64,000 nucleotides of DNA, taken from assembly GCF_003574965.1 (NCBI RefSeq), contig NZ_CP032317.1, positions 682,001 to 746,000 on the forward strand. The letters run 5' to 3'. The position numbers and the translations under genes were made by a program. Position 1 is the first letter of the stretch. Every line of letters begins with the position of its first letter. The notes beneath the pieces were generated by a model. It did not search any database, was not told where the DNA came from, and worked only from the letters and a program-made list of their open reading frames with translations. Shown piece after piece: positions 1 to 64,000 of the stretch. Source of the stretch: Hymenobacter oligotrophus. Lineage in GTDB: Bacteria > Bacteroidota > Bacteroidia > Cytophagales > Hymenobacteraceae.

Positions 1-564
1 TTCTTCCACGGCCACCTTCTCCTTCATGCGCTCGAGCAGGGCCACCGTGCCCGACGAATCGAGCTGGGCCAGCTGCTTGTTGATGGTTTTCGTAGCCGAG
101 CTCACCGCGGCGCGGGCCTTCAGCGTTTTCAGCTCGTTTTCCCAGGTGCCAATGGTTTGCTTCAGGGTTTGCACGTTGGCATCGAGCTGCTGCGCCGAGG
201 CTTCAAACTTTTGCTGATCAGCGGCGGCCCGCTCGGCCTGGGCTTCGTTTTCGGTTTTCTTACCTAGGGCTTCGCTGGCGAGGCGGTCGGCCTCGGCGGT
301 GGCGAGGTCGCCGCGGTGGGCGCGCTGTAGCAACAGCACCGCCTTGGTTTCGTAGTCCTGGGCTTTGGTGCGGAAGCTTGCGGCCTCGTTGCGGCTCCGG
401 ATGGCCATGGCTTTCACCTCGGCCAGGGCGTGCAAGCTTTTGTCGAGGTCCTGGCGCAAGTCGCGCAGGCCTTGCTCGGTCATCTTGATGGGGTCTTCAA
501 GCTGATCGACTGCGGAGTTGGCTTCGGCCTGACCAATTTTAAACAAGCGGGAAAAGATGTTCAT
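1..564 (-). CDS. PspA/IM30 family membrane-stress protein (C-terminus beyond window)
   Basis: 188 codons are visible, read from ATG at 564 to the window edge with no stop. The N-terminus MNIFSRLFKIGQAEANSAVD is the amphipathic helix plus linker typical of PspA/IM30/Vipp1. It is followed by EDPIKMTEQGLRDLR and a long Ala/Glu/Lys/Gln-rich coiled coil. Family members bind and remodel the inner face of stressed cytoplasmic membranes as ESCRT-III-like oligomers. The gene follows the YbjN-like gene on the same strand with a 121-bp gap that contains a CCTAGG site. Only the C-terminal helices are missing, because of the window edge. Confidence 0.9.
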   Translation of the reverse strand, partial: MNIFSRLFKIGQAEANSAVDQLEDPIKMTEQGLRDLRQDLDKSLHALAEVKAMAIRSRNEAASFRTKAQDYETKAVLLLQRAHRGDLATAEADRLASEALGKKTENEAQAERAAADQQKFEASAQQLDANVQTLKQTIGTWENELKTLKARAAVSSATKTINKQLAQLDSSGTVALLERMKEKVAVEE

Positions 565-685
565 GGCGTTACTGGGGTTGGTAGTTCGAAGGGAAAGTGA
601 GGTGACAACAAGGGCAAAGGCGCGGCCATGCCCCGGGCACCTAGGGCTGTTGGCAAACCGGCTGCGAGTAAGCTGCAGGCAGGAA

Positions 686-1108
686 TTAAGAGGCTAGCAC
701 GGGCGCGGCCACGCCGCGCGAAAACTCAATCAGCTCGTCGGAAAACTCCGTGAGCAGCAGGCTAAGCGAGTTGAGCACGGCTTCCAGCTCCGATTGGTCG
801 AGGGTTTCGATTTGCAGCGTGTCGCGGAAAATTACTTTGCGGCCCGACTCGTCGAGGGCAAAAGCCCCGTGAATGATGTCGCGGTTTTTCTGCAGCAGGC
901 GTTGGTACACCTCGCACGATGGTGTCGGCAGCTCCAGCAGGTATTGCTCCATAATCAGGAGCGGCTCGCCACAACCCAGCACCAGGTTGCGGATGCCCAG
1001 CGCCGGGTTGTCAACCACCAACACGCCGTCGTGCTCGTCGGCGTGGCGGATATCGAAACCAAGTGCCAGCAAGTAGTTCTTAACAGTAGCGAAGTAGCGG
1101 TTGGGCAT
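686..1108 (-). CDS. YbjN / CesT-like small protein
   Basis: 140 residues with no signal peptide or membrane segment. The pattern (FATVKNYLLALGFDI, then an acidic loop, VLVVDNP, LIMEQYLLELP, VYQRLLQKNR) resembles the alpha/beta fold of YbjN and type III secretion-chaperone-like (CesT/Tir chaperone) proteins. In Bacteroidota such proteins often sit next to pspA. It is upstream of the PspA gene on the same strand, so a joint role in membrane-stress response is a contextual inference. There is no evidence here for a type III secretion system. Family assignment is by pattern only. Confidence 0.6.
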   Translation of the reverse strand: MPNRYFATVKNYLLALGFDIRHADEHDGVLVVDNPALGIRNLVLGCGEPLLIMEQYLLELPTPSCEVYQRLLQKNRDIIHGAFALDESGRKVIFRDTLQIETLDQSELEAVLNSLSLLLTEFSDELIEFSRGVAAPVLAS

Positions 1109-1253
1109 ATGCGGCAGTATTGGCGGTGTGGTAGTAGCGGAAGGTAACCAAACTTAGCTGGGTTGCCAATGCTCAAAAAAGTAGCGGTGGCAGGTGGTGG
1201 TTGCGGTGTTTGTGGTAGATTTACGACGCAACATTACTGAAAGTTTTAGATGT

Positions 1254-1268
1254 GCTCAAAGTTTGAGC
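1254..1268. promoter_or_regulatory. Perfect 15-bp palindrome, likely autoregulatory operator
   Basis: GCTCAAA-G-TTTGAGC is a perfect 7+1+7 inverted repeat. It ends 19 bases before the ATG (1288) of the XRE/S24-like regulator. Its position and symmetry suggest the binding site of that dimeric helix-turn-helix protein, but binding is inferred, not shown. Confidence 0.55.
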
Positions 1269-3322: not shown

Positions 3323-3916
3323 ATGTCTGCCCAAGCAACATCCTCCGCTCTCGATACCCGCACCCGCATACTTGACCTAGGCGAGCAATTTATGCTGGCC
3401 CGTGGGTTTAACGCGTTCAGCTACCAGCACATTGCCAAGGAGCTGGAGGTGAAGCCGGCGGCCATTCACTACCATTTTCCGAGCAAGGAAGACCTAGGCG
3501 TGGCCATCATTCGGCGGCAACTCAACCGCTTGCGCAAATGGCGCGGCTTACCGCGCGTAACGGAGCTTACGCCCGCGCAGCAGTTCGATGCTTTGCTCGA
3601 GGTGTACCATGGCCGCGTAACCGAACGGCAGCAGGTGTGCTTTTTCGGGGCCTTGGCCGCTGAGTTTCAGACGCTGCCCGAAGCCATGCAGCAGGAGCTG
3701 CGCACCTTCACCACGGAGCTAACCGAGTGGGTAGCTGGGGTGTTGGCCGCCGGGCGCGAAGCAGGCACCATGCACTTCAGGGGGCATCCGGTTTCGAAAG
3801 CCTCGCAGGTGCTCACCACCTTGGCCGGTGCGCTGCAGGTAGCGCGCGTGTACGATGCCCGCCAGTACGAACGCATTGTAGCGCAGCTGCGCACCGAGCT
3901 GCTGGAGCCCGCCTGA
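3323..3916 (+). CDS. TetR/AcrR family transcriptional regulator
   Basis: 197 residues from the ATG at 3323; a TTG three codons upstream is less likely. Residues about 10-58 are a TetR_N helix-turn-helix (ILDLGEQFMLARGFNAFSYQ, then KPAAIHYHFPSKEDLG). The remainder is an all-helical ligand-binding and dimerisation domain. A perfect 20-bp palindrome lies just upstream. The downstream alpha/beta hydrolase gene starts 52 bp after the stop on the same strand and is the likely co-regulated target. The ligand is unknown. Confidence 0.9.
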   Translation: MSAQATSSALDTRTRILDLGEQFMLARGFNAFSYQHIAKELEVKPAAIHYHFPSKEDLGVAIIRRQLNRLRKWRGLPRVTELTPAQQFDALLEVYHGRVTERQQVCFFGALAAEFQTLPEAMQQELRTFTTELTEWVAGVLAAGREAGTMHFRGHPVSKASQVLTTLAGALQVARVYDARQYERIVAQLRTELLEPA

Positions 3917-3968: not shown

Positions 3969-4922
3969 ATGTCACCTTATAACATTACCCTAGTTATGGT
4001 GAATACGTATTCGCCCGCGTACGACCGCGCCGCGACCCTCATGCCCCCACTTGTTTCGCCTTCGGAGTTCCGGTATGCCGAGCCACCCGGCATTGGTTGG
4101 GTGCGGCTGAAGTTCCGAGTGCTTTCGGCTATTTCAACCGAACTGGCGTTTCGCGAGGCGTGGCGCATGTTCTGCACGCCGCGGCGGCTACCCCGCAAAA
4201 AGTGGGAAGAGGCTGCGCTAGCCACGGCCCGGGCTTTCCGGGTACCGTTTGAGCGGGGCTCGTTGGCCGCCTACGAGTGGAACCCCAAGGGCCAGCGCAC
4301 CGTGCTGATGGTGCACGGCTGGGAGCACCGAGCCGCCTTCTGGGGCGTGTTTGTGGATGCGCTGGTGCGCGCCGGCTACCGCGTAGTAGCCTTCGATGGG
4401 CCCGCCCACGGCGACTCCAGCACGGGCCGCCGCACCAACTTGCCGCAGTACGGCCGCGCCACCCAAACCGTAGCCAACCACCTAGGCGAGGTGTGGGCGG
4501 TGGTTAGCCACTCCTTTGGCGCCGCCACCACCGCGGGGCTGCCGGTGGTGTTCAACCAGGGCCAAGGGCTGCCTAGGCTGGTGCTGATGAGCGCCCCCGG
4601 CAACACGCCCGCCGTGGCCCAGCGCTTTGCTGATTTACTACACCTCTCGCCAAAAGTGCTGGCCCGCATGGCGCGCCACGTGCGCGAGCAGCACGGCCGC
4701 GATGCCGAGAGCTTCAGCCTAACCCAAGCCGGCCCGCGCGTGCAGGCCGAGCGCGTAATGCTGCTCCACGACTGCAACGACGACTCAGTGCCGTTCACGG
4801 AGGCGCAGGAAGTTGCCCGCAATTGGCCCGGCCTGGATTTCCGGCCCACCAATGGCCTAGGTCATAACAAGATCATGCGCGACAAAGGGGTGATTCGGCA
4901 GGTAGTGGAGTTTTTAGGGTAA
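3969..4922 (+). CDS. Alpha/beta hydrolase
   Basis: 317 residues from ATG 3969; ATGs at 3996 and 4041 are alternatives. The hydrolase core begins near residue 110 with VLMVHGWEHRAAFW (oxyanion loop), then FDGPAHGDS. The nucleophile elbow is VSHSFGAAT with Ser as nucleophile. An acidic residue lies in LLHDCNDDSVPF and a terminal His in NGLGHNKIM, completing a plausible Ser-Asp-His triad. The first 100 residues are not recognised and include an Arg/Trp-rich stretch. Likely an esterase or related hydrolase co-transcribed with the TetR gene. The substrate is unknown. Confidence 0.8.
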   Translation: MSPYNITLVMVNTYSPAYDRAATLMPPLVSPSEFRYAEPPGIGWVRLKFRVLSAISTELAFREAWRMFCTPRRLPRKKWEEAALATARAFRVPFERGSLAAYEWNPKGQRTVLMVHGWEHRAAFWGVFVDALVRAGYRVVAFDGPAHGDSSTGRRTNLPQYGRATQTVANHLGEVWAVVSHSFGAATTAGLPVVFNQGQGLPRLVLMSAPGNTPAVAQRFADLLHLSPKVLARMARHVREQHGRDAESFSLTQAGPRVQAERVMLLHDCNDDSVPFTEAQEVARNWPGLDFRPTNGLGHNKIMRDKGVIRQVVEFLG

Positions 4923-5040: not shown

Positions 5041-6072
5041 CTAAATCTCCTCGTGGCCGGCTTCATCCAGCTCCCGCAGCAACTGCCGCAGGTTCTCCGG
5101 GTCTTGCACGGCTTTCTGCACTAAGTCCAGGTACTCAGCTTCGCCGCGTAGGCTGCGCTTCACTTGCCGCAACTCGGCTTCCTGTTTTTTGCCGGTACCC
5201 ATAAAGGCGTTCCGGTCGCCGAATTTCAGTTGTTGCAGGCGCAGCTTCAGCTCCGTTTGCTGTTGCTGCAGCGCCCGGGTGTAGCGCATCAGCAGCTCAT
5301 CGGATTCGGCGTCGGAGTCGCCTTGGCGGTGCTCGGCCAGTAGTTGCAGCAGGGCGTAGAGGTCGTCGGCTTCGTAGGCGCGGGTGATGCGCTGCATGCG
5401 TTCGGTTTTCTGGCGGGCCAGCTCTGGGTCGCGCTCCAGGTCGGGGTGGTTGGCGCGGGCCAGTTGGCGGTACACGGCTTTGGTACCGGCTTGCAGGCGC
5501 TTCTGGTCGGCCGCGAGTGCTCGGGCGGCGGCTTCCTGCTCGCGTTCCTGCTTTGATTTGCGCTTGCCGCGCTGGTGCGCGTGGTGCTCGGCGTGCTCGT
5601 GCCAGGTATCCGAAGCAGCTGCATGTTTGTCGTCGGCCTTAGCCGACCTAGGCTCGGCTGGGCGTTGCTGCGGGGCGTAACGGCGGATGAGCTCGGCTAC
5701 GTCTTCGCCGAAACGGTTCTGCAATGTAAGCGCATTGCGCAGCAGCAGCTCTTCGATGCGCTGCTCTTCCAGGCGGCTGAAGTAGCCGGTGGTAAGCGCG
5801 GCTTCCAGCGGTTCAAACAACGAACGGCGGGCGGCTACCACGGCATCGGCCAGCGGGCCTACCTGGCGCCAGTACTTGTTTTTGGCTTCGCGCTGGGCTT
5901 GCTCCAGCTCCTGCACCTGGTTGCGCAGGTTTTCTACGTCCTGTACTGCTTGCCGAAAGGCCTGCTGCGCCGGGGTGCCGGTGGGTTCGGGGGTTTGGCC
6001 GTGCCGGCCTACCTCGCGCTGGGTTTTGGGCGTGTGGCGGGCATCAAACTCTTCAAACTCGGGTAGGGGCAT
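5041..6072 (-). CDS. J-domain-like coiled-coil protein
   Basis: 343 residues if started at the ATG at 6072, which gives MPLPEFEEFDAR; the upstream extension is Pro/Leu-rich overlap with the deacetylase gene. The first half is charged and helical (QVQELEQAQREAKNKYWRQV). Residues about 185-245 are a DnaJ-type region with the diagnostic HPD in YRQLARANHPDLERDPELA, then helix IV. The rest is coiled coil. It overlaps the 3' end of the deacetylase gene by 20 bp, so the two are translationally coupled. HPD suggests stimulation of an Hsp70 ATPase; the client is unknown. Confidence 0.7.
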   Translation of the reverse strand: MPLPEFEEFDARHTPKTQREVGRHGQTPEPTGTPAQQAFRQAVQDVENLRNQVQELEQAQREAKNKYWRQVGPLADAVVAARRSLFEPLEAALTTGYFSRLEEQRIEELLLRNALTLQNRFGEDVAELIRRYAPQQRPAEPRSAKADDKHAAASDTWHEHAEHHAHQRGKRKSKQEREQEAAARALAADQKRLQAGTKAVYRQLARANHPDLERDPELARQKTERMQRITRAYEADDLYALLQLLAEHRQGDSDAESDELLMRYTRALQQQQTELKLRLQQLKFGDRNAFMGTGKKQEAELRQVKRSLRGEAEYLDLVQKAVQDPENLRQLLRELDEAGHEEI

Positions 6073-7051
6073 GGGCGTCGGCGGCAGCGGTAGAAGGCGA
6101 AGCAGCGGGCAAAGGTCGGCAAGAAGCGGCGCCCCACAGCGCGTAGGCCACGGCAAAGGTGTTGCAGTGGGCATCCACGATGTCGGCGATGCGCTCGGAG
6201 TAGCCGCCGCCCATGCTCACGGCCACGGGCAGCCCGAGGGTGTGGCACAGGCCGAGCACGTATTCGTCGCGGTGGCGGCAACCGGCGGGCGAGAGGGCCA
6301 GCTTGCCGAGCTTGTCGGTAGCCAGCACATCTACCCCGGCCTGGTAGAAGATAAAATTGGGTTGCACGCGCTCGATAAGGCCGGGCAGCACGGCCTGCAA
6401 CTGCCCTAGGTAAGCGGCGTCACCCATGCCTAGGGGCAGCTCCACGTCGAGGTCCGATTGCTCCTTGCGCAGCGGGTAGTTGGCGCCGGCGTGCATCGAG
6501 AAGGTGAACACCCGCGGCTCGTGCCGGAAAATAGCCGCGGTGCCGTCGCCCTGGTGCACGTCGAGGTCGACCACCAGCACCTGCCGCGCCAGGCCGTGGT
6601 GCAGTAAGTGGGCGGCGCCAATGGCAATGTCGTTGAGCACGCAAAAACCCTCGCCGCGGTTGGCAAAGGCGTGGTGGGTGCCGCCAGCGCAGTTCAGGGC
6701 CACGCCGTCGCGCAAGGCCCGCAAAGCCGATTGCAGCGTGCCCGCCGACGAGGACAAGGAACGCAGCACCAGCTGCTCGCTTTGCGGCAACCCTAGGCGG
6801 CGCACCTCGGCAGGGGAGAGCTGCAGGTCGCGCACCTTGTGCCAGTACTCGGCGGTGTGCACGCGCAGTACGTCTTCTTCGGCGCACAGGCCGGGGTCGT
6901 AAAAATCTTCGGGCGGGGCAATACCCTGCCACAGCAGCTGCTCCCGAATCAGCTCGTACTTGGCGATGGGAAAGCGGTGGCCTTGGGGTAGTGCAATGGT
7001 GTAGCGGTCGGAGGTAGCGAGGCAGGGCATGCGGGTAGGCGCTGAAGACAT
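6053..7051 (-). CDS. Histone deacetylase / acetoin-utilisation (AcuC-like) family protein
   Basis: 332 residues. Zn-hydrolase motifs appear in the order of the family: CAGGTHHAFANRGEGFCVLND (tandem His), VVDLDVHQGDGTA (Asp and His Zn ligands), TFSMHAGANYP and FYQAGVDVLATDKLG (third ligand Asp). The Tyr/Gly-rich SMGGGYS follows. Bacterial members remove acyl groups from proteins, acetylpolyamines or small molecules; the substrate here is not evident. The last 20 bp overlap the J-domain gene, forming a two-gene unit. Start at 7051 chosen; the ATG at residue 8 (MPCLATSDRY) is nearly as good. Confidence 0.85.
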   Translation of the reverse strand: MSSAPTRMPCLATSDRYTIALPQGHRFPIAKYELIREQLLWQGIAPPEDFYDPGLCAEEDVLRVHTAEYWHKVRDLQLSPAEVRRLGLPQSEQLVLRSLSSSAGTLQSALRALRDGVALNCAGGTHHAFANRGEGFCVLNDIAIGAAHLLHHGLARQVLVVDLDVHQGDGTAAIFRHEPRVFTFSMHAGANYPLRKEQSDLDVELPLGMGDAAYLGQLQAVLPGLIERVQPNFIFYQAGVDVLATDKLGKLALSPAGCRHRDEYVLGLCHTLGLPVAVSMGGGYSERIADIVDAHCNTFAVAYALWGAASCRPLPAASPSTAAADAHAPTRV

Positions 7052-7503: not shown

Positions 7504-8268
7504 ATGCTGAAATCTAAACCCCTTCCCGTTCCGGACGAGCACGTGCCGGCCAACCTGCAGGCCCCAGTGGAGCGCCGCACTTTTCTGCGCTACGGGAGCG
7601 CAGCCCTGGCCCTGACCGGCTTGGCCCTGGCCGGCTGTGCCAAGGACCCGGCCGACGACCTGGAGCTGAACGCCGTCACCTCACAGGACGAAGGCACGAA
7701 CGCGCTCGTCGACGTAGGCACCGGCGACTTCGGCGTGCTCAACTACGCCTACGCCCTGGAACAGCTCGAGTCTGCTTTCTACGCCCAGGTGCTAGCGGGT
7801 AGCTACCACCTGCGCGCCTCTGCGGCCGAGAACTACGCCCTGTACGACATTCACGAGCACGAACTAGTGCACCGGGATTTCTTCAAGGCGGCCATCGCGG
7901 CGCTGGGCGGTACGCCCATTCCCAACCTGGCACCAGACTTTTCGGGCATCGACTTCGACAGCCGCACAAGCGTGCTCACGGCAGCCCGCACTTTCGAGGA
8001 CCTAGGCGTAGCTGCCTACAACGGCGCCGGGCCGCTGCTGCGCAGCCCGGAACTGCTGGCCATTGCCGGCAAAATTGTGTCGGTGGAAGCCCGCCACGCC
8101 GCCTTAATACGTGACATCATTCAGGATGGCACCTTCGTGGGGCCCGATGTGGTGGACTTGCGTACGGGGCTCAACCAGTCGCTGCGACCGGCGCAAGTGG
8201 TGGCCCAGGCCAACCGCTTTTTGCAGCCGGGCTCCAAGCTGAACGTGAGCGGCCTGAGCCGGGGCTAA
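7504..8268 (+). CDS. Tat-type ferritin-like lipoprotein
   Basis: 254 residues. The N-terminus has a twin-arginine motif (VERRTFLRYGS), a hydrophobic stretch and a lipobox (LALAGC), suggesting Tat export and lipidation. The mature part is a four-helix ferritin-like domain (PF13668-like). Each helix supplies likely diiron ligands: YALEQLESAFY, HEHELVHRDFF, TFEDLGVAAY and VEARHAALI (the Glu/ExxH pattern twice). Such proteins occur in tandem in Bacteroidota and Deinococcus and are linked to oxidative and desiccation stress. The next gene is a paralogue 36 bp downstream, so they form an operon. Confidence 0.85.
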   Translation: MLKSKPLPVPDEHVPANLQAPVERRTFLRYGSAALALTGLALAGCAKDPADDLELNAVTSQDEGTNALVDVGTGDFGVLNYAYALEQLESAFYAQVLAGSYHLRASAAENYALYDIHEHELVHRDFFKAAIAALGGTPIPNLAPDFSGIDFDSRTSVLTAARTFEDLGVAAYNGAGPLLRSPELLAIAGKIVSVEARHAALIRDIIQDGTFVGPDVVDLRTGLNQSLRPAQVVAQANRFLQPGSKLNVSGLSRG

Positions 8269-9394: not shown

Positions 9395-9413
9395 GTACGC
9401 ACCTAGGGCGCTG

Positions 9414-11381: not shown

Positions 11382-11627
11382 GGGATATGGTAAGAATGAA
11401 AATGGCGTGCAGCTACGCTGGCTTACTTAGCCAGTGGGGTAAGAGTTACGCATCGCCCATGCACAGTGGATTGCCAAAAGGCATTAAATCCGCATTAAAT
11501 ATTCAACCTCATCTATGTGCCTTGCTGAAGTTGCTGCACAATCCCTGCCGCAGGCACCAAGCAGGCTTTGCGCAACCTAGGCCATGGCAGGAGCAGTAAA
11601 CCCACTACCATCCTTCCCATCCGCATC

Positions 11628-13140: not shown

Positions 13141-13325
13141 CATTTGCGTAGCACCAAAGCCCGGCAGGGGCGGCGGCACCTAGGGTTGCTCTGCCGCAAG
13201 CACTTTTGGGCAACTTGCCCTAGGTGCTGCTGGGCGTTTGCCCATGCGGCAGGCAGTTTTACCGATTGCACGTGGTGCCGTGGCTTTACTGCGGCGCTTA
13301 TTTCTTTAACTCCACTACTCCACTG

Positions 13326-50149: not shown

Positions 50150-50167
50150 CTTGTTAGGCACCTAGGG

Positions 50168-55033: not shown

Positions 55034-55326
55034 TCAGTTATTTAGACTGATTCAAAAGTGATGCAAAGCAACTGCTTGTTTAGATCCGGTCCAAATAAAA
55101 AATTGCGCCGGGTTAACTTTTTTAATCCATTCTGATCAAAATCAGCTTTTGCCGAAGCCATCCACGCTGCAAATAGGCGCATTGAGTTAAAGGCCGAAGC
55201 GCTAGAGCCCTGCCGATGCCGCCAACCGTTGCCGCCTTTGCAAGCGGGCTAAGTCACCTAGGCCGTACCGACACGCCGGTTGCTCTTGCTCGTGCGTGCG
55301 CGGGCATTGCTGTCGATATTGCCGCC
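55034..55326. other. Divergent promoter region between TonB receptor and Crp-like gene
   Basis: About 290 bp, AT-richer than neighbours. A weak inverted repeat CTGAT-CAAA-ATCAG (55132-55145) resembles a Crp/Fnr-type site, but the arms are only five bases. One CCTAGG lies near 55258. No gene is apparent. Confidence 0.4.
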
Positions 55327-55917
55327 ATGAACCCAAGGTCGGCCGCCGTACTACAAGCTTATTTTGCCGGCCGGCTGGCTCTTAGCGAGCAGCAGCTCAC
55401 GGCCGCATCGGCGTTGTTTGAGCCGCGAATGTTGCGCCGCGCCGAGGTGTTGGTTTGGGCCGGCGAGGTGGCTCGGGTGGGCGCATTTGTGGCCCAGGGC
55501 TGCCTGCGGGCCTTTGTGGTTGATACCAAGGGCAAAGAGCACGTGGTGCAATTTGCGCCCGAGCAGTGGTGGGTGGCCGAGCAAAACAGCCTGCTTCGCC
55601 GCGAGCCCGCCATGTTTGCCATCGATGCCGTGGAAGACTCCGAGGTATTGCTTTTCGACGCGACGTTTTACCGCAAGCTCAGCCAGATAACGCCTGCTTT
55701 TCCGGAGTTTTTTGCCACGCTGCTCCAAAACAACATGCGCACCATGCAAAAGCGGCTGGTGCTTACGCTCAGTGCATCGGCCGAGCAGCGCTACCTGGAC
55801 TTTTTGCAAACCTACCCGACGCTGGCCCAGCGCCTGCCGCAGCGCATGATTGCAGCATACCTAGGCGTAACGCCCGAATCGTTGAGCCGAATACGGCGCG
55901 AACTGTCGGGGCATTAA
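55327..55917 (+). CDS. Crp/Fnr family transcriptional regulator
   Basis: 196 residues from ATG 55327 (MNPRSAAVLQAYFAG); the longer 55216 start adds atypical residues. The cyclic-nucleotide-like beta-barrel includes EVLVWAGEVARVGAFVAQGC and FAPEQWWVAEQNSL. The C-terminal winged helix reads LPQRMIAAYLGVTPESLSRI. Many Bacteroidota members of this class lack strict cAMP-binding residues. Divergent from the TonB receptor gene, it may regulate it. It is followed 117 bp later by the DODA dioxygenase. Confidence 0.87.
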   Translation: MNPRSAAVLQAYFAGRLALSEQQLTAASALFEPRMLRRAEVLVWAGEVARVGAFVAQGCLRAFVVDTKGKEHVVQFAPEQWWVAEQNSLLRREPAMFAIDAVEDSEVLLFDATFYRKLSQITPAFPEFFATLLQNNMRTMQKRLVLTLSASAEQRYLDFLQTYPTLAQRLPQRMIAAYLGVTPESLSRIRRELSGH

Positions 55918-56034
55918 CTGGCTTTAATGCCTGCACTAGCACGCGGCATTTCTTACCATACATCAAGGCGCGGCCCTAGGTGGCGGGGTAGTTTTGCAGC
56001 GCAACCACCCGTACTGCCACCCCTGAATCGCCGA

Positions 56035-56907: not shown

Positions 56908-56939
56908 GGGGCTGCCGCGCACCTAGGGCCACCAACGCA

Positions 56940-57611: not shown

Positions 57612-59375
57612 ATGCGTTTTCATCGCACTTTCGAAATCCTGAATCAGCGCGCTGCCGAAGCACCGCAAGCTGATTGCCTTGTAGCCAAAATCGGCGGTAA
57701 GTGGTTGCCCCTCAGCAACCAACAAGTGCAGGATGCGGCCAATGCCTGCAGCCTGGGCCTGCGCCACCTAGGGGTAGGGCAGGGCGATAAGGTGGCCATT
57801 ATCTCGAACAACCGTCCGGAGTGGGTGCAGGCCGATTTCGGCATTGCGCAGCTGGGCGCCGTGAGCGTGCCCATGTACCCCACCATCACGGTAGAGGATT
57901 ACCGGTACATTTTTCAGGACGCGGCCGTGAAGGTGGTGCTGGTATCGGACCGCAAGCTGTACGCCCGCGTGAAAGAGGCCCTGCAAGGCCTGGAGCAAGC
58001 CCCCGAGCACGTATTCACCTTCGACCAAGTGCCCAACGCCCGCCACTTCGACGAGTTGCTGGCCCTAGGTCGCCAAGTTAATTTAGCCGAGCTGGAGCCC
58101 CTGAAAGCCGCCGTACAGCCCGACGACCTGCTGACGCTTATTTACACCTCGGGCACCACGGGCCGGCCCAAAGGCGTAATGCTCTCGCACGCGAACATCC
58201 TCAGCAACTGCCACTCGCTGCGTGAGTTTATACCCGTAGTGCCCGGCGAGAAAGCGCTAAGCTTTCTGCCGCTTTCGCACATTTTTGAGCGCACGGCCAC
58301 CTTCCTGTACCTAAAGCTGGGCCTTGCGGTGTACTACGCCGAGGGCTTGGAGGTGATAGCCGACAACCTGCGCGAAGTGCAGCCCCAGGTGTTTACCACC
58401 GTACCGCGCCTGCTCGAGAAAATCTACGATAAGATTGTTGCGAAAGGCCAGACGCTCGAGGGCTTCAAGAAAAAGCTGTTCTTCTGGTCGCTCGACCTAG
58501 GCCTGCGCTACGACCCGCAACGCAGCCTGGGGCCGGTGTACAACGCCCAACTGGCCGTGGCCAACAAGCTGGTGTTCAGCAAGTGGCGCGAGGCGTTGGG
58601 CAACCAAGTAAAGTGCATTATTTCGGGCGGCGGAGCGCTGCAGCCGCGCTTGGCGCGGGTGTTCTGGGCCGCGGGCATTCACGTGATGGAGGGCTACGGC
58701 CTGACGGAGACCTCGCCCGTAATTGCCGCTTGCCGCTACAACCGCGAAGACAACATGCCCGGCACGGTGGGCCCCGTTATTCCGGATGTAGAGGTGAAGA
58801 TTGCGCCCGACGGGGAGATCTTGACCAAGTCGGCCTCGGTGATGAAGGGCTACTACAACCGGCCGGATTTGACGGCGGAGGTGATTGACGCGGAGGGCTG
58901 GTTCCACACGGGCGACATCGGCGAGTTTGTGAACGGGCGCTTCCTCAAAATCACCGACCGCAAGAAGGAGATGTTCAAGACCTCGGGCGGCAAGTACGTG
59001 GCCCCGCAGGTCATCGAAAACAAGCTCAAGGAGTCCCCCCTCATCGAGCAGGCCATGGTCGTCGGCGACGGGCAGAAGTATGCCGCGGCCTTGCTGGTGC
59101 CAGCCTTTGAGGAGCTGCGCAACTGGGCCAAGCAGCAGCAGATCAGCTTTGCCAACGATGCAGCGCTGGTGGCCCACGAGCGGGTGCAAAAGCTATACCG
59201 CGAGCTGGTAAGCCAATACAACGCGGCTTTCGCGCAGTGGGAGCAAGTAAAGAAAGTGGCGTTGGTGCACAACCCCTGGACGGTGGAAACCGGCGAGCTG
59301 ACGCCCACCATGAAGCTCAAGCGCAAAATCATCAGCGCCAACAACGAGCAGCGCATTGCCGGGCTGTTTCAGTAA
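57612..59375 (+). CDS. Long-chain acyl-CoA synthetase (AMP-binding)
   Basis: 587 residues from ATG 57612 (MRFHRTFEILNQRAAEAPQA). AMP-binding motifs are LIYTSGTTGRPKGVMLSH (P-loop), GYGLTETSPVIAACRYN, GWFHTGDIGEF and the catalytic Lys region near the C-terminus (KLKRKIISANNE). It activates long-chain fatty acids to acyl-CoA with ATP through an acyl-AMP intermediate. Followed by a terminator and a CCTAGG. The chain length preferred is not readable from sequence. Confidence 0.93.
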   Translation: MRFHRTFEILNQRAAEAPQADCLVAKIGGKWLPLSNQQVQDAANACSLGLRHLGVGQGDKVAIISNNRPEWVQADFGIAQLGAVSVPMYPTITVEDYRYIFQDAAVKVVLVSDRKLYARVKEALQGLEQAPEHVFTFDQVPNARHFDELLALGRQVNLAELEPLKAAVQPDDLLTLIYTSGTTGRPKGVMLSHANILSNCHSLREFIPVVPGEKALSFLPLSHIFERTATFLYLKLGLAVYYAEGLEVIADNLREVQPQVFTTVPRLLEKIYDKIVAKGQTLEGFKKKLFFWSLDLGLRYDPQRSLGPVYNAQLAVANKLVFSKWREALGNQVKCIISGGGALQPRLARVFWAAGIHVMEGYGLTETSPVIAACRYNREDNMPGTVGPVIPDVEVKIAPDGEILTKSASVMKGYYNRPDLTAEVIDAEGWFHTGDIGEFVNGRFLKITDRKKEMFKTSGGKYVAPQVIENKLKESPLIEQAMVVGDGQKYAAALLVPAFEELRNWAKQQQISFANDAALVAHERVQKLYRELVSQYNAAFAQWEQVKKVALVHNPWTVETGELTPTMKLKRKIISANNEQRIAGLFQ

Positions 59376-59401
59376 GCAGCCCGGTTAGTCACCTAGGCGC
59401 A

Positions 59402-59436: not shown

Positions 59437-60654
59437 CCACCTAAACCGCCATACCGGCAGCACCTTGCCGGCCGCAAACTGCTCGCGCTCGGCGGGCAGC
59501 TCCAGAAAACCGTCGCTGGGGAGCAAGCTGGCCAGGTCGCCAGAGCCGTGGGCGCGCTCGGGGTGAGCCAATAGCTGGCCGGTGGGGGTGCTCTGCAAGC
59601 TTACCAGCAGAAAGTGCGTGAGCCTGGGTTTGAAAACGACATCGGTGGCCAGCACGGCGTAGGTAGGTGCGGCAAACGCAGGCTCGGGCAGCTGCACGGC
59701 CCGCAACCACGGCGCGGCGTAGCGGAAGTAGTTGACAAACGTAGAAACCGGATTGCCGGGCAAGGCAAATACCACTGCGCCCTGCGGATGCCGGCCAAAC
59801 CAGAACGGCTTGCCCGGGCGCTGCTGCACTTCATGAAAAATCTGCTCGGCACCGCATTCGCGCAGGGCCTGGGGTAGGTAATCGGCTTTGCCTTTTGATA
59901 CGCCTCCGCTGAGCAACACCGCATCGAATTGCTGCAGCAAGGCAGGCAGGCCCGCACGTAAGGTGTCGAGGTCGTCGTTGAAGTGGAAAGCCTCGGCGGT
60001 AGCACCTGCCTGCTGGGCGGCCGCTTGCAGCATTTGCGCATTGGAGCGCCTGATTTGGTGCGGCAAGGGCACTTCGGAAACCTCTACCAGCTCGTCGCCG
60101 GTGCTAACCACCGCTACCCTAGGTGCCCGCGACACGCTTAGCTGCGCGGCACCCACGGTAGCGGCTACGGCCACTTCGGCGGGGCCGAGCAGCGTACCCG
60201 CGGGCAGCAGCAGCTCGCCCTGTTGTCGATCGGAGGCGCGGCGGTGTACGTTGAAGCCGGCGCCGGTGGGCGGCACCTGCACGGTGGCGGTGCGGCGGCC
60301 GTGGGCGTGCTCGGCAATCAGCAAATCCTCGTAGCGCACCACGGCATCGGTGCCGGGCGGCATGGCGGCGCCGGTCATTATTTCAATGGCCGCTTGCGGA
60401 TTGAGCAACGGGGTAGGGGCCTGGCCGGCAAACTGCGTGCGCTCAATCTCGAAAACCTGCTGCCCCGCCGCCACGGCGGCGTAGCTCAGCGCAATACCAT
60501 CCATGGCTACCCGGTCGAAGGGCGGAAAGTCGCGGTCGGCGTATAGAGGCTCGCGCAGTACCCGGCCCCGCGCTTGGGCCAGTGCTACGGTTTCGGTGGG
60601 CAGCGGCTGGGCGGTGCCCTGAACAAGGCGGGTAGCTTCGTCGACGGAAAGCAT
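59434..60654 (-). CDS. moeA: Molybdopterin molybdenumtransferase MoeA
   Basis: 406 residues. It has LSVDEATRLVQGTAQPLP, FDRVAMDGIAL, IEIMTGAAMPPGTDAVVRYE, VVSTGDELVEVSEV, VLLSGGVSKGKADYLPQAL, KPFWFGR and FALPGNPVSTFVNYFRY. MoeA inserts molybdate into adenylylated molybdopterin to make Mo-cofactor. It is divergent from moaC, 203 bp apart. With moaC, mobA and xdhC it forms a cofactor supply group around a Mo-enzyme not seen in the window. Confidence 0.93.
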   Translation of the reverse strand: MLSVDEATRLVQGTAQPLPTETVALAQARGRVLREPLYADRDFPPFDRVAMDGIALSYAAVAAGQQVFEIERTQFAGQAPTPLLNPQAAIEIMTGAAMPPGTDAVVRYEDLLIAEHAHGRRTATVQVPPTGAGFNVHRRASDRQQGELLLPAGTLLGPAEVAVAATVGAAQLSVSRAPRVAVVSTGDELVEVSEVPLPHQIRRSNAQMLQAAAQQAGATAEAFHFNDDLDTLRAGLPALLQQFDAVLLSGGVSKGKADYLPQALRECGAEQIFHEVQQRPGKPFWFGRHPQGAVVFALPGNPVSTFVNYFRYAAPWLRAVQLPEPAFAAPTYAVLATDVVFKPRLTHFLLVSLQSTPTGQLLAHPERAHGSGDLASLLPSDGFLELPAEREQFAAGKVLPVWRFRW

Positions 60655-60857
60655 GCGGGTGCGTAGCAGGGAAGTAGGAGTGAGGCGGCCCTAGGTGGCT
60701 AAACTTTGGGCAGGGCGCTAAGGTAAAGCGCATCGGGGCAGTAGCCGGCCGGGCGCCGTAACTTGCCCTCCGCAGTGGCGCTGGTGCTGCTTAAGCTCTG
60801 GCGCCTTGGTTTCAGCGGGCGGCCTGCGCCGCTTTTGGTTGTTTTCGATTTCCGATC

Positions 60858-61349
60858 ATGTCCAATTCTTCTAAACTCACGCACCTCAACGACGCCGGCC
60901 AACCCGCCATGGTTGACGTAGGCGGCAAGGCCGTTACGCGGCGGGTGGCCCGCGCCCGCAGCCGAGTGGTGCTCGGGGCCGATATTCTGGCGCTGGTGCA
61001 GCACGGCGACTTGCCCACGCGCAAAGGCCCCGTGTTTCAGACGGCTATTCTGGCGGGCATTATGGCCGCTAAAAAAACCGCCGACCTCATTCCGCTGTGC
61101 CACCCCCTAGGTCTCGACGACTGCCAAGTTACCATACAGGTAGCGCCGCCCGCGGCCGTGGTTATTGAGTGCACGGCCACCGTAACGGGCAAAACCGGCG
61201 TGGAAATGGAAGCCCTGACCGGCGCTTCGGTAGCGGCTCTCACCATTTACGACATGTGCAAGGCTCTGTCGCACGACATTGTAATTGAGCACACGCGCTT
61301 GCTGTCGAAAACCGGCGGCAAGAGCGACTACCACTACCACGATGCATAA
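60858..61349 (+). CDS. moaC: Cyclic pyranopterin monophosphate synthase MoaC
   Basis: 163 residues, full length for MoaC. It has SKLTHLNDAGQPAMVDVGGK at the N-terminus, then ILAGIMAAKKTADLIPLCHP, GVEMEALTGASVAALTIYDMCK and LLSKTGGKSDYHYH. MoaC converts the MoaA product into cPMP, early in Mo-cofactor synthesis. Its last codons overlap the start of the MobA gene by 8 bp, so the two are translationally coupled. Confidence 0.95.
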   Translation: MSNSSKLTHLNDAGQPAMVDVGGKAVTRRVARARSRVVLGADILALVQHGDLPTRKGPVFQTAILAGIMAAKKTADLIPLCHPLGLDDCQVTIQVAPPAAVVIECTATVTGKTGVEMEALTGASVAALTIYDMCKALSHDIVIEHTRLLSKTGGKSDYHYHDA

Positions 61350-62520
61350 GCCTGCCCACACCAAGCACGCAGCCTTGGCGCGGCCTAACCTTGGCGAGTT
61401 TGGCCGCCACGAGCTGGCCGTGCTGGGCGCCCCCTGCGGCGTAATTAAGGACTTGGCCTCGCGCTTGCTGCCCGAGCTAAGCACTGGCTTGCGCGTGGCC
61501 TACGTAGATGCCGACCACGCCGCCGGCGATGCTGCCGACCAAGGCGAGGCCGGCGGCGCCGATGCCATTTTGCAGGCCGGAGCCGCTGCCGAGCTAACCG
61601 ACAAAATTCATTTTCGCCGGCTCGATGCGCGGCAGGGCATGGATAAGTTCAGCCAACAGCACTGGCTGGCCGGGCAAAGCCTGGTGTTGGCAAACGGCAA
61701 CCACTTCCGGGCCAAGCAGCAGGTTATTATCCTCGATCCGCGCAAACCGCTGGAGAAGAAGCTCGACCGCCTTACCGATGTGCAACTGGTGCTGACTACC
61801 GAAGGCCAAACCGAACTGCCGGAGTACCTGCGGGCGCACTTGCCCAATGCTGCCGAGCTGCCCGTATTGGCCCTAGGTGATACCGCCGGTATTGCCGCTT
61901 GGGTGCGGCAGTGGTGGCAGCAACGCGTGCCGCCGCTGCGGGGCCTGGTGTTGGCCGGCGGGCAAAGCCAACGCATGCAAGCCGACAAAGGCCGCCTGCG
62001 CTACCACGGCCCCGAACAGCGCGAGCACGCCGCAGCCTTGCTGGCTCCGTTTTGCCAGGAGGTGTTCGTGTCGTGCCGGGCCGAGCAGGCGGCGGAGCTG
62101 CCGGCTGGCCTGCAACCGCTGCCCGATCAGTTCCTCGACCTCGGGCCCATGGGCGGCATTCTGTCGGCGCTGCGCCACGACCCCAACGCCGCTTGGCTGG
62201 TAGTAGCCTGCGACCTGCCGTTTCTCTCCAACGCCACCTTGCAGCACCTGGTGCAGCACCGCAACCCGGCTCGGGTAGCAACGGCATTCCGGAGCCCCGC
62301 AAACGAGTTTCCGGAGCCGCTGATTACCATCTGGGAGCCAAGCAGCTACGGCGTGTTGCTGCAATTCCTGGCGATGGGTTACTCGTGCCCGCGAAAGGCG
62401 CTCATCAACTCCGATGTGCAGGTGCTGCAAGCCCCCGCCCCGCAAGAGTTGCGCAACGTAAACACACCTACCGAGCGCGACGCGGCGCAGCAAGAGTTGC
62501 TGAGCTCTCGCAAGCAATAA
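61342..62520 (+). CDS. mobA: MobB-like / MobA fusion (Mo-cofactor guanylyltransferase)
   Basis: 392 residues from ATG 61342. Residues about 1-185 look like a MobB-type fold, but the usual GxxGSGKTT loop is degenerate (LAVLGAPCGVIKDL). Residues about 195-390 are the NTP-transferase MobA: LRGLVLAGGQSQRMQADKGR, LDLGPMGGILSAL, VVACDLPFLSNATL and RKALINSDV-like later motifs. MobA links GMP to Mo-cofactor. Overlaps moaC by 8 bp. The N-terminal domain may be regulatory or vestigial. Confidence 0.8.
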   Translation: MHKPAHTKHAALARPNLGEFGRHELAVLGAPCGVIKDLASRLLPELSTGLRVAYVDADHAAGDAADQGEAGGADAILQAGAAAELTDKIHFRRLDARQGMDKFSQQHWLAGQSLVLANGNHFRAKQQVIILDPRKPLEKKLDRLTDVQLVLTTEGQTELPEYLRAHLPNAAELPVLALGDTAGIAAWVRQWWQQRVPPLRGLVLAGGQSQRMQADKGRLRYHGPEQREHAAALLAPFCQEVFVSCRAEQAAELPAGLQPLPDQFLDLGPMGGILSALRHDPNAAWLVVACDLPFLSNATLQHLVQHRNPARVATAFRSPANEFPEPLITIWEPSSYGVLLQFLAMGYSCPRKALINSDVQVLQAPAPQELRNVNTPTERDAAQQELLSSRKQ

Positions 62521-62587
62521 GTTTGGGAGGCTTCAGTGCGTCTTGCCCGCGGAGCAGTAGCTGCAATAGTAGAGCTGGGCAACGCAG

Positions 62588-63028
62588 TTAGCCCTCAATG
62601 GCCTCAATGCCTTGCTCTTTTAGCCGCTGTAAGTTCGCTTTCATAGCGCTGAGCTGCTCTGGCGAGTGGCCTTGCCAATTGGTAACTTCCCCAACCACTC
62701 GCAGCGGGTGTTGCGTGCGGTAGGATTTGGTCGGATTGCCCGGAAACTTCTTGTCCGTCAGGTTCGGGTCGTCTTCGAAAGGGCCGGTAGGCTCCACTAT
62801 GTAAATGCGGCCGGGCCCGTCGCCTAGGGCAAGTTCAGCTCCCCAAGTGGCTGCGTCGAGGGTGGCAGTGAGGTACACGTACGCAGCCTTTTTGTGCTGC
62901 CCATAGTTCGAGTTGAAGCCGGGCTGTATCAGGTCGCCTAGGTGCAGGTTGGCCTTGGTGCCGTGGTAGAAGGGCTGGTCGTTCAGGTCGTGGATAGCGG
63001 TTGTGCTCATGCCCTCGTATTTGCTCAT
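62588..63028 (-). CDS. arr: Rifampin ADP-ribosyltransferase (Arr)
   Basis: 146 residues from ATG 63028; 63010 is an alternative. The Arr fold is recognisable: PFYHGTKANLHLGDLIQPGF, NSNYGQHKKAAYVYLTATLD, ATWGAELALGDG and RIYIVEPTGPFEDDPNLTDK, then NPTKSYRTQHPLRVVGEV. Arr inactivates rifamycins by ADP-ribosylation using NAD+. Sits alone on the minus strand inside the Mo-cofactor group, with two CCTAGG sites, so it is well adapted to the genome and not an obvious recent import. Confidence 0.88.
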   Translation of the reverse strand: MSKYEGMSTTAIHDLNDQPFYHGTKANLHLGDLIQPGFNSNYGQHKKAAYVYLTATLDAATWGAELALGDGPGRIYIVEPTGPFEDDPNLTDKKFPGNPTKSYRTQHPLRVVGEVTNWQGHSPEQLSAMKANLQRLKEQGIEAIEG

Positions 63029-63316
63029 TTTGATTGTAGCCTTGGCTTCTGTTGCGCTTACGGATAACTGCTGACCAGCTGGCTTATATATGCCCAACGA
63101 CGGTGTTGATGCTTCAAGGCAAGCATATGTAACCCGGCTACCGCGCGTTATCTGCTACCTCCACACCTAGCGGGGAACCGTGCCCATGCTGCCTTGGTGC
63201 ACAACCGCTAGCCTTGGCCCGGCGTACTGCCCAAAGCCGCTTTCTTTACCAAGCTTATCATGGCAACAGGCACCCGCGGCGGGCTTTTGCCGGTATCTGT
63301 CGCTTTTTATCACCCG

Positions 63317-64000
63317 ATGACCGAACTCCAACGTCTGCTCGCTGCCTACGACGACTACCGTGCCGCCGGCCGCGCCTGCGCCCTGGCTACCGTGGTGGAG
63401 GTGGAGGGCTCGGCCTACCGCCGCCCCGGCGCCCGCATGCTAGTCGGCGACGACGGCCAGCTGACCGGTGCCATCAGCGGTGGCTGCCTCGAGGGCGACG
63501 CCCGCCAGCGCGCCCGGCAGGCCTTGCAGCAACAACGCCCCACGCTTGTTACCTACGACACCAGCGACGAAGACGACCCGCGCCACGGCCTCGGCCCCGG
63601 CTGCCAGGGAGTAGTGCGCATCCTGCTCGAGCCCCTCAATTTCGCCGACCTCGACAATCCCCTGGAGCTGCTGCGCGGTTTTGCCCTGCATCCCGAACCG
63701 GCCGTACTAGCCACGGTGTTCCGGTGCGCCGCCGGCCAGGCCGTAGCCGACCTAGGCCAACGCCTGCTGCTAGTGCCCGACGGACAGGTGCGCGGCTCGG
63801 CGCTCGATAATCTGCCCCTTACGGCCCAACTGCGCCACGACGCTGCTCAGGCCCTAATGCAGGATCAGTCGCTGATACGCGAGTACCCAGCACCGGCAGG
63901 CGGCACCGTACGCGTGATTCTGGAAGTGCTGCGCCCACCGTTGCGCCTTACCGTGTACGGCGCCGGCAACGATGCCCAGCCGCTCGTTCGGCTGGCGGCT
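63317..64000 (+). CDS. XdhC/CoxI family protein (C-terminus beyond window)
   Basis: 228 codons are visible from ATG 63317. It has ALATVVEVEGSAYRRPGARM, then GAISGGCLEGDARQRARQAL, and a downstream RLTVYGAGNDAQPL, the start of the Rossmann-type XdhC_C domain. XdhC proteins load or mature the sulfido-Mo cofactor of xanthine dehydrogenase or CO dehydrogenase-type enzymes. Shares the neighbourhood with moeA, moaC and mobA. The upstream 290-bp gap has nothing further I can support. Confidence 0.9.
   Translation, partial: MTELQRLLAAYDDYRAAGRACALATVVEVEGSAYRRPGARMLVGDDGQLTGAISGGCLEGDARQRARQALQQQRPTLVTYDTSDEDDPRHGLGPGCQGVVRILLEPLNFADLDNPLELLRGFALHPEPAVLATVFRCAAGQAVADLGQRLLLVPDGQVRGSALDNLPLTAQLRHDAAQALMQDQSLIREYPAPAGGTVRVILEVLRPPLRLTVYGAGNDAQPLVRLAA

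What the first reader, a model, noticed from the sequence alone, without database searches (positions are those of the whole stretch)
1..64000. CCTAGG is a highly iterated palindrome of this genome
By eye I count about 85-90 copies in 64 kb. If GC is near 62% (my estimate), composition alone predicts on the order of 20, and CTAG is usually avoided in bacteria. About 28 copies are intergenic although intergenic DNA is about an eighth of the window, so density there is roughly three times that in genes. In genes it forces the codon CTA for Leu before Gly (for example D-L-G and A-L-G as GAC CTA GGC and GCC CTA GGT). Flanks often extend to GCACCTAGGGC. This resembles HIP1 of cyanobacteria or DNA-uptake sequences rather than a codon bias. 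I do not know of a description in this clade.
Basis: partly seen in the sequence, partly recalled or inferred. Interest (0 to 1): 0.88.

Follow-up and report, generated by a model that had tools for sequence, protein, structure and literature searches.

The report
Chromosome-wide DNA tag with species dialects
This bacterium carries a seven-letter DNA word about once every 780 letters of its genome but not on the small extra DNA molecules sampled here, and many relatives carry different words of their own, which looks like a 'this is my own DNA' label of the kind known in only a few other bacterial groups.

Summary
The count is right: 88 CCTAGG in the window, 21 expected from composition, 18.6 from a third-order Markov model. 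The palindrome reading is not. The unit is the asymmetric word ACCTAGG(S): of 678 CCTAGG in 464 kb of this genome, 308 have only the 5' A, 313 only the 3' T, 12 both (153 expected), 45 neither. Genome-wide there are 2,671 + 2,670 copies against 16 + 21 for the reversed word. Synonymous shuffles give 20 coding copies, observed 394; there is no strand bias. In the genus (that of Solirubrum puertoriconensis) 3 of 8 genomes have it, and they form a clade. Other genera of the family, and Fibrivirga outside it, have their own words, mostly centred on TA: CCCTAGGG, AACCTAGGT, GGCTAGCC, TTATACTT, TATAGTT, CTATACCT, AGGTACGTT. This genome's small contigs lack the word (0 in 82.7 kb, about 115 expected); one dialect genome in each of two other genera shows a five- to seven-fold depletion. 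In-motif CTA codons are conserved far better than other CTA codons. This works like DNA uptake sequences with dialects, but no type IV pilus secretin was found in this genome and uptake is untested, so I do not file it as one. Methylase-linked, Chi-like and chromosome-architecture readings remain possible.

The parts
262..268 (+). ACCTAGG copy, coding
639..645 (+). ACCTAGG copy, intergenic
3375..3381 (+). ACCTAGG copy, intergenic
3492..3498 (+). ACCTAGG copy, coding
4480..4486 (+). ACCTAGG copy, coding
4856..4862 (-). ACCTAGG copy, coding
5646..5652 (+). ACCTAGG copy, coding
6405..6411 (-). ACCTAGG copy, coding
8000..8006 (+). ACCTAGG copy, coding
9191..9197 (+). ACCTAGG copy, coding
9401..9407 (+). 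ACCTAGG copy, intergenic
9555..9561 (+). ACCTAGG copy, coding
10213..10219 (-). ACCTAGG copy, coding
11017..11023 (-). ACCTAGG copy, coding
11575..11581 (+). ACCTAGG copy, intergenic
12365..12371 (-). ACCTAGG copy, coding
12602..12608 (-). ACCTAGG copy, coding
13178..13184 (+). ACCTAGG copy, intergenic, inverted pair with 13219
13219..13225 (-). ACCTAGG copy, intergenic, inverted pair with 13178
14420..14426 (-). ACCTAGG copy, coding
14641..14647 (+). ACCTAGG copy, intergenic
15076..15082 (-). ACCTAGG copy, coding
16254..16260 (-). ACCTAGG copy, intergenic, inverted pair with 16280
16280..16286 (+). ACCTAGG copy at a gene end, inverted pair with 16254
17043..17049 (+). ACCTAGG copy, coding
18515..18521 (-). 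ACCTAGG copy, coding
19340..19346 (-). ACCTAGG copy, intergenic, inverted pair with 19372
19372..19378 (+). ACCTAGG copy at a gene end, inverted pair with 19340
20385..20391 (-). ACCTAGG copy, coding
20604..20610 (-). ACCTAGG copy, coding
20908..20914 (-). ACCTAGG copy, coding
22230..22236 (+). ACCTAGG copy, intergenic
23205..23211 (+). ACCTAGG copy, coding
23790..23796 (+). ACCTAGG copy, coding
25878..25884 (+). ACCTAGG copy, coding
27518..27524 (-). ACCTAGG copy, coding
27694..27700 (+). ACCTAGG copy, coding
27767..27773 (-). ACCTAGG copy, coding, inverted pair with 27802
27802..27808 (+). ACCTAGG copy, coding, inverted pair with 27767
29042..29048 (+). ACCTAGG copy at a gene end, inverted pair with 29060
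29060..29066 (-). ACCTAGG copy, intergenic, inverted pair with 29042
29622..29628 (-). ACCTAGG copy, intergenic
29702..29708 (+). ACCTAGG copy, intergenic
31547..31553 (+). ACCTAGG copy, intergenic
32287..32293 (-). ACCTAGG copy, coding
32960..32966 (+). ACCTAGG copy, intergenic
33458..33464 (+). ACCTAGG copy, coding
33738..33744 (+). ACCTAGG copy, coding
35258..35264 (-). ACCTAGG copy, intergenic
35750..35756 (-). ACCTAGG copy, coding
36483..36489 (+). ACCTAGG copy, intergenic
37132..37138 (+). ACCTAGG copy, coding
37603..37609 (+). ACCTAGG copy, intergenic by my gene calls
39611..39617 (+). ACCTAGG copy, coding
40333..40339 (-). ACCTAGG copy, intergenic
41551..41557 (-). ACCTAGG copy, intergenic
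41742..41748 (+). ACCTAGG copy, coding
41940..41946 (+). ACCTAGG copy, coding
44448..44454 (-). ACCTAGG copy, intergenic
45158..45164 (+). ACCTAGG copy, coding
45404..45410 (-). ACCTAGG copy, intergenic
46072..46078 (-). ACCTAGG copy, intergenic
46779..46785 (+). ACCTAGG copy, coding
46921..46927 (-). ACCTAGG copy, coding
50032..50039 (.). ACCTAGGT, the only window copy with both flanks, coding
50160..50166 (+). ACCTAGG copy, intergenic
51414..51420 (+). ACCTAGG copy, coding
53106..53112 (-). ACCTAGG copy, coding
53574..53580 (-). ACCTAGG copy, coding
55256..55262 (+). ACCTAGG copy, intergenic
55859..55865 (+). ACCTAGG copy, coding
55975..55981 (-). ACCTAGG copy, intergenic by my gene calls
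56921..56927 (+). ACCTAGG copy, intergenic
57766..57772 (+). ACCTAGG copy, coding
58064..58070 (-). ACCTAGG copy, coding
58495..58501 (+). ACCTAGG copy, coding
59391..59397 (+). ACCTAGG copy, intergenic
60118..60124 (-). ACCTAGG copy, coding
60690..60696 (-). ACCTAGG copy, intergenic
61106..61112 (-). ACCTAGG copy, coding
61872..61878 (-). ACCTAGG copy, coding
62937..62943 (-). ACCTAGG copy, coding
63750..63756 (+). ACCTAGG copy, coding

Best explanation
ACCTAGG(S) is a chromosome-wide, asymmetric self-tag that works like a DNA uptake sequence. A sequence-reading protein, probably at the cell surface, prefers DNA that carries the word. Such DNA from kin is taken up and recombined into the chromosome, so the word accumulates wherever a gene tolerates it, and it stays off plasmids because they do not enter the chromosome by homologous recombination. 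The reader protein changes specificity now and then, giving species dialects. Shown: the word, its asymmetry, copy number, strand balance, dialects, gain or loss inside genera, excess conservation, depletion on accessory contigs. Inferred: the reader protein, uptake, recombination.
For: Copy number 2,671 + 2,670 against 16 + 21 for the reversed word. Asymmetry: 12 of 678 CCTAGG have both flanks, 153 expected. Coding copies 394 against 19.75 +/- 3.3 in 20 synonymous shuffles; intergenic 215 against 8.3. No strand bias over 21 stretches (chi2 11.0, 21 df, p 0.96). Dialects in three genera and in Fibrivirga, some differing by one letter, and TATACTT and TATAGTT together in G034 and G022, as Frye 2013 (PMC3630211) reports for two one-letter dialects in S. 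muelleri. Accessory contigs depleted: G000 0 in 82.7 kb (about 115 expected), G005 5 in 120 kb (158), G032 42 in 120 kb (220), G051 15 in 80 kb (102). In-motif CTA codons kept in G005 28 of 42 against 13 of 81 elsewhere, in G007 33 of 43 against 36 of 83. Of 34 pairs 7 to 59 bases apart 26 are inverted, and density is highest between convergent genes, 4.05 per kb, as PMC3630211 describes for DUS at terminators. ComEC is present.
Against: No PilQ match in G000; 14 of 98 genomes have a match, none over the family cut-off, and among the word-rich genomes of that set only G054 has a weak fragment. So the known type IV pilus and ComP route seems absent. ComEC is in 96 of 98 genomes and does not track the word; in word-rich G045 its frame holds one internal stop. 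DUF5689, a domain of one Riemerella competence protein, does not track it. One-mismatch forms are barely enriched: O/E 1.08 against 0.91 in word-poor relatives and on the small contigs, whereas PMC1939737 reports about 3 to 6 times for known uptake sequences (longer words, so not directly comparable). Identity to sister species is lower near copies (84.6% within 30 bases, about 89% at 101-800 bases, G005), so no sign of recombination-linked conservation. The excess of inverted close pairs is not seen in the Pontibacter-group dialects. No gene was found that tracks the word. Plasmid depletion could reflect recent acquisition.
Confidence: 0.45

Rival explanations
1. HIP1-like word maintained through a DNA methyltransferase: a solitary methylase marks the word and marked sites bias mismatch repair or are needed for it, so the word accumulates about once per kb.
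For: Density near 1 per kb with mild under-dispersion (CV 0.89); alternate HIPs with sporadic distribution are known (PMC4390886, sections 2.3, 2.4 and 3.4 read). The G058, G109 and G032 dialects have palindromic cores with independent flanks.
Against: HIP extensions keep the palindrome (PMC4390886); here the flanks exclude each other. G000, G032 and G048 have neither PF01555 nor PF00145 matches. A cell-wide repair process should also act on resident plasmids, which lack or are poor in the word. Outgroup precursors differ at one to several positions.
Confidence: 0.15
2. Chi-like site read by AddAB (or a related end-processing nuclease): the word stops degradation of broken chromosomes and foreign DNA lacking it is destroyed.
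For: Asymmetric, chromosomal, missing from plasmids, differs between species; an AddB-type nuclease domain is present (PF12705, 33 of 33 genomes searched; that this is AddB is my reading of the domain and frame length).
Against: No strand bias along the chromosome, whereas Chi is usually biased to one replication strand (recalled). The domain is equally present in word-poor genomes. The excess (376 ACCTAGGG against 8.4 by a second-order model) is large for a Chi site (recalled).
Confidence: 0.12
3. Binding site of an abundant chromosome-organising protein (nucleoid, condensin or segregation factor) that acts only on the chromosome.
For: Chromosome-only distribution, even spread along the chromosome (1.0 to 1.9 per kb in 21 stretches), preference for intergenic DNA, TA-centred cores.
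Against: Relatives of the same genus do without it (5 of 8 at background), odd for a core chromosome function; no strand polarity.
Confidence: 0.15
4. Context-dependent mutation or biased repair with no function for the word.
For: CTA-containing words arise by transitions such as CCTGGG or CCCAGG to CCTAGG; ACCTGGG and ACCCAGG are the commonest forms at changed places in G005 (11 of 23).
Against: Outgroup sequences at the same places differ at several positions and in several ways; plasmids of the same genomes lack or are poor in the word; in-motif CTA codons are kept far better than others.
Confidence: 0.08

Closest known systems
DNA uptake sequences (DUS) of Neisseriaceae and USS of Pasteurellaceae
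   Same: Thousands of copies of a short non-palindromic word, both strands equally, allowed in genes and dense between genes, inverted pairs at gene ends, dialects with a shared core among relatives, two one-letter dialects in one genome (PMC3630211, abstract and two sections read).
   Different: Bacteroidota, not Proteobacteria; no type IV pilus secretin found in this genome; shorter core (7 to 9 bases); uptake never tested; weak mismatch gradient; some dialects are palindromic.
HIP1 and alternate HIPs of cyanobacteria
   Same: About one copy per kb, in genes and between them, sporadic replacement by other words between relatives (PMC4390886).
   Different: HIPs and their extensions are palindromic and go with a methylase; here the word is asymmetric and the two methylase classes searched are missing from this genome.
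Chi sites of RecBCD/AddAB
   Same: Short asymmetric species-specific chromosomal word.
   Different: No strand bias; the nuclease domain does not track the word.
KOPS (FtsK-orienting sequences)
   Same: G052 carries GGGTAGGG, which fits the recalled KOPS form GGGNAGGG and is strand-biased (50 against 18).
   Different: ACCTAGG of this genome has no polarity.
Candidate k-mers of Riemerella and Flavobacterium
   Same: Also Bacteroidota; frequent k-mers were listed as putative uptake sequences and R. columbina prefers its own DNA (PMC7965970, passages read).
   Different: The k-mers shown in the passages I read are A-rich; the authors left their function open; no dialect series or plasmid contrast in the passages I saw.

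Membership tests
DNA uptake sequences (DUS/USS) | thousands of copies, far above expectation | tested here: met
   5,341 ACCTAGG against 37 for the reversed word
DNA uptake sequences (DUS/USS) | non-palindromic unit, both orientations equal | tested here: met
   2,671 and 2,670; flank exclusion; strand chi2 p 0.96. Not met in the G058, G109 and G032 dialects
DNA uptake sequences (DUS/USS) | dialects with a conserved core among relatives | tested here: met
   the shared TA core fails for G055 (GGGCCCC)
DNA uptake sequences (DUS/USS) | inverted pairs at gene ends | tested here: met
   for this genome; no excess in the Pontibacter-group dialects
DNA uptake sequences (DUS/USS) | graded excess of one-mismatch forms | tested here: inconclusive
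   O/E 1.08 against 0.91
DNA uptake sequences (DUS/USS) | type IV pilus machinery with a DUS-binding pilin | tested here: not met
   PilQ TIGR02515: no match in G000, 0 of 98 over the cut-off. The cut-off is strict: the same search rings in 6 of 14 control genomes, 1 over it
DNA uptake sequences (DUS/USS) | ComEC channel | tested here: met
   PF03772 in G000 and 96 of 98; not discriminating; internal stop in word-rich G045
DNA uptake sequences (DUS/USS) | word raises uptake and transformation | not testable with these tools
   needs an experiment
HIP1 and alternate HIPs | palindromic unit | tested here: not met
   12 of 678 with both flanks, 153 expected
HIP1 and alternate HIPs | density near one per kb | tested here: met
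   1.39 per kb in 464 kb
HIP1 and alternate HIPs | matching methyltransferase | tested here: inconclusive
   no PF01555 or PF00145 in G000; PF02086, PF02384, PF07669 and others not searched
Chi sites | strand bias along replichores | tested here: not met
Chi sites | recognition by AddAB or RecBCD | not testable with these tools
   PF12705 in 33 of 33, says nothing about recognition

The most novel reading that the evidence does not exclude
Bacteroidota (the Solirubrum genus, Hymenobacter-type and Pontibacter-type genomes, Fibrivirga) have their own, independently evolved DNA self-recognition code: short TA-centred words in thousands of copies, read by an unknown protein that changes dialect between species, used for kin-selective DNA uptake by a machinery without type IV pili.
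Probability: 0.4. Interest if true: 0.93.

Novelty: new variant of a known kind. Interest (0 to 1): 0.83.

Why it matters
Uptake sequences with proven function are known to me from two proteobacterial families (recalled; dialects in Neisseriaceae, PMC3630211). A comparable code in another phylum, gained and lost within genera, would let one find the reader protein by comparing sister species and ask whether such codes serve sex, defence or chromosome upkeep. The words CCCTAGGT, TTATACTT and AGGTACGTT are ready-made test substrates. Depletion on accessory contigs in genomes of three genera already argues against a purely mutational origin, a standing argument about HIP1 and uptake sequences.

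Tried and rejected
Codon bias as cause: rejected by synonymous shuffles and the in-motif against out-of-motif CTA comparison. Palindrome: rejected for this genome. Chi or KOPS polarity: no strand bias. Single mutational hotspot: outgroup precursors are diverse. Type IV pilus route: no PilQ in this genome. Riemerella-type outer-membrane competence protein as the tracking gene: DUF5689 does not track (weak match in G000 and G007, none in G005, good matches in word-poor genomes). ComEC and PF12705 are near-universal and say nothing. PF01555 and PF00145 methylases do not track. Recombination-linked conservation near copies: opposite trend, probably because copies sit in less constrained places. 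Genome size is smaller in word-rich genomes of two genera (p 0.036 and 0.015) but not in the third (p 0.88); the wider comparison of 28 against 22 g3 genomes (p 0.033) mixes other dialects into the 22, so I do not lean on it. High words that are not dialects: G025's TCGTTTTT is a dispersed inverted repeat; L117, L151, L152 and L155 are tandem or clustered repeats; L182's TCTGACC (Salibacter) is scattered and unexplained. Paper searches for a prior description gave none.

Full report
1. The observation. The window holds 88 CCTAGG; composition predicts 21.2, a third-order Markov model 18.6, and it is the most over-represented hexamer by that score. In the whole genome (4,188,814 bases, 4 contigs; window = C1:682001-746000) CCTAGG occurs 5,678 times, the reversed control word 67 times.

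2. The unit is not a palindrome. In the window 45 copies have only the 5' A, 37 only the 3' T, 1 both, 5 neither. In 464 kb of this genome (window plus 20 spaced stretches of 20 kb) the numbers are 308, 313, 12 and 45, where independence would give 153 with both. Sister genomes G005 (2 of 114, 24 expected) and G007 (6 of 134, 31.5 expected) agree. The word is ACCTAGG, next base G or C in most copies and almost never T. It occurs 2,671 and 2,670 times on the two strands, control 16 and 21. The 21 stretches show no strand bias (chi2 11.0 on 21 df).

3. It is not codon use. With my own gene caller (399 genes, 81% coding) the 464 kb hold 394 copies wholly in genes against 19.75 (sd 3.3) after shuffling synonymous codons within genes, and 215 in intergenic pieces against 8.3 from a first-order model (ACCTAGGT counts twice in these two numbers). 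Density is 1.14 per kb in genes and 2.47 per kb between them; between convergent genes 4.05, co-directional 2.59, divergent 1.74 per kb. Of 34 pairs 7 to 59 bases apart, 26 are inverted, several within longer inverted repeats at gene ends (read by eye). Copies per gene match a Poisson expectation closely; spacing is slightly even (CV 0.89, longest gap 3.6 kb).

4. It is clade-specific and maintained. Over 98 genomes, this one included, G000 (4,682), G005 (4,558) and G007 (4,831) are rich in ACCTAGGS; the other five of the genus have 25 to 67, of the order of the reversed control. The next highest is G058 (581), which has the CCCTAGG dialect. The rich three form a clade with support 1.000 in a tree of 3.2 kb around dnaB, and G005 and G007 are 88.7 and 88.8% identical to the window where aligned, the five poor ones 77.9 to 80.2%. 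At the window's 84 copies the word is intact in G005 at 45 of 68 aligned places (7-mers in general 48%) and in G007 at 53 of 69 (50%), in five outgroups at 0 of 19, 0 of 15, 1 of 18, 0 of 17 and 0 of 12, with varied, often multiply different precursors. CTA codons inside the word are kept in G005 in 28 of 42 cases against 13 of 81 outside (Fisher p 4e-8), in G007 33 of 43 against 36 of 83 (p 4e-4). This is upkeep of the word, not of the codon. Identity is lower close to copies, so copies sit in freer places.

5. Dialects. I scanned stretches of up to 20 kb from 54 other family genomes for over-represented 6- to 8-mers (larger samples of some) and 75 of 80 named loci around dnaB. Beside ACCTAGG I find CCCTAGG(G) in G058 (180 in 100 kb, 16.5 expected), GGCTAGC(C) in G032 and, less clearly, G049, CCCTACCCC in G052, GGGCCCCGG in G055 (weaker, no TA), TTATACTT in many genomes of genus g3 and in four named Pontibacter loci (P. 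litorisediminis, P. aydingkolensis, two uncultured), TATAGTT beside TATACTT in G034 and G022, CTATACCT in G038, G045 and G207, AACCTAGGT in G109. Many show none: four other named Pontibacter loci and all eight named Hymenobacter loci, the five poor genomes of g1, and the samples from g2, g4 and g6 (TCCGGA is mildly raised in some). Whole-genome counts over 204 family genomes: CCTAGG exceeds 1,200 in 10 of 120 genomes of g5 and 3 of 8 of g1, and is at most 888 in the remaining 191; TATASTT exceeds its reversed control at least 2.8-fold in 28 of 50 genomes of g3. Outside the family, Fibrivirga algicola has AGGTACGTT 823 and 851 times against 6 and 7. The other words over its threshold are tandem or clustered repeats, except one unexplained. 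That g5 is Hymenobacter and g3 Pontibacter is inferred from GC content and dialect, not from a matching contig; g4 is Adhaeribacter (G035's contig length equals that of A. aquaticus). The CCTAGG dialects of G058 and G109, and GCTAGC of G032, tolerate the palindrome, so the asymmetry is a trait of this genus and of the non-palindromic dialects. G052's word is strand-biased (50 against 18) and may be a KOPS-type polar sequence rather than a dialect.

6. Chromosome only. The three small contigs of this genome (82,738 bases read, GC 0.58 to 0.65) hold no copy, about 115 expected. Ten of their frames searched include an RND pump, a P-type ATPase, MerT and DUF3945/DUF4099 proteins, so they are probably plasmids; no replication gene was identified. 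G005 contigs C2 and C3: 5 copies in 120 kb read, 158 expected. G032 C2 to C4: 42 GGCTAGC in 120 kb, 220 expected. G051 C2: 15 TATACTT in 80 kb, 102 expected. In G007 one small contig is chromosome-like (26 in 20 kb), one has 0 in 20 kb, one 2 in 12.5 kb. A mutational or repair bias acting on all DNA in the cell would not leave long-resident replicons bare, unless all were newly acquired.

7. Mechanism. The pattern fits an uptake code: preferential import and recombination of tagged kin DNA spreads the tag on the chromosome. Frye 2013 (PMC3630211; abstract and the sections DUS dialects and DUS counts read) describes thousands of copies, eight dialects with a fixed core, two one-letter dialects in one genome and inverted pairs near terminators, all paralleled here. 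But this genome has no PilQ match (14 of 98 genomes match below the cut-off, one of them, G054, word-rich). Bacteroidota can be competent without the known outer-membrane apparatus: in Riemerella (PMC8459023; abstract, two results sections and discussion read) ComEC, DprA, ComF, RecA and four proteins of unknown function are needed, and R. columbina prefers its own DNA (PMC7965970; passages read). ComEC is present here, as in 96 of 98 genomes; in word-rich G045 its frame holds an internal stop. The DUF5689 domain of one Riemerella protein does not track the word. No tracking gene was found. The mismatch gradient that marks known uptake sequences (PMC1939737; abstract and one section read) is weak.

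8. Rivals. HIP1 (PMC4390886; abstract and sections 2.3, 2.4, 3.4 read) is palindromic and methylase-linked; this genome lacks PF01555 and PF00145 matches, as do G032 and G048, but other methylase classes were not searched. Chi is disfavoured by the strand balance, a chromosome-architecture protein by the word's absence from close relatives; neither is excluded.

9. Verdict. It works like an uptake sequence (0.45) but fails one tested feature of that family, the pilus, so it is not filed as a member. I found no prior description.

Noticed in passing
G102, G105, G116, G152, G154, G182, G189 and others (control column): GGATCC, the reversed control word, is nearly absent (0 to 10 copies) in a sizeable minority of g5 (Hymenobacter-type) genomes while many others have 100 to 300, which looks like avoidance of a restriction site.
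   Followed up: no
L054-L056, L210 (genome G052): CCCTACCC/GGGTAGGG is about 11-fold over-represented and strand-biased (50 against 18), resembling the recalled FtsK-orienting form GGGNAGGG.
   Followed up: partly
L081 (genome G025): A dispersed inverted repeat with TCGTTTTTGGCCT at its arms, pairs about 32 bases apart, ten copies of TCGTTTTT in 20 kb.
   Followed up: partly
L049-L053 (genome G058): A repeated element around AAGCATCTC (25 copies, 0.7 expected) and GTCATGCT (28 copies, 2.5 expected) in 100 kb, apart from the CCCTAGG dialect.
   Followed up: no
L030:4091, L037:13463, L038:1748, L042:8815 and window 19340: Inverted pairs of the word 32 bases apart between genes or at gene ends, with similar arms (about CCTAGGTG and GGCACCTAGG), perhaps a small repeat element that has adopted the word.
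   Followed up: no
G010, G027, G035 (L064, L083, L091), also G033 (L089): Mild excess of the palindrome TCCGGA in Adhaeribacter-type genomes and one g6 genome.
   Followed up: no
L182 (Salibacter halophilus): TCTGACC 13 times in 14.6 kb (1.4 expected), scattered with different flanks; unexplained.
   Followed up: partly
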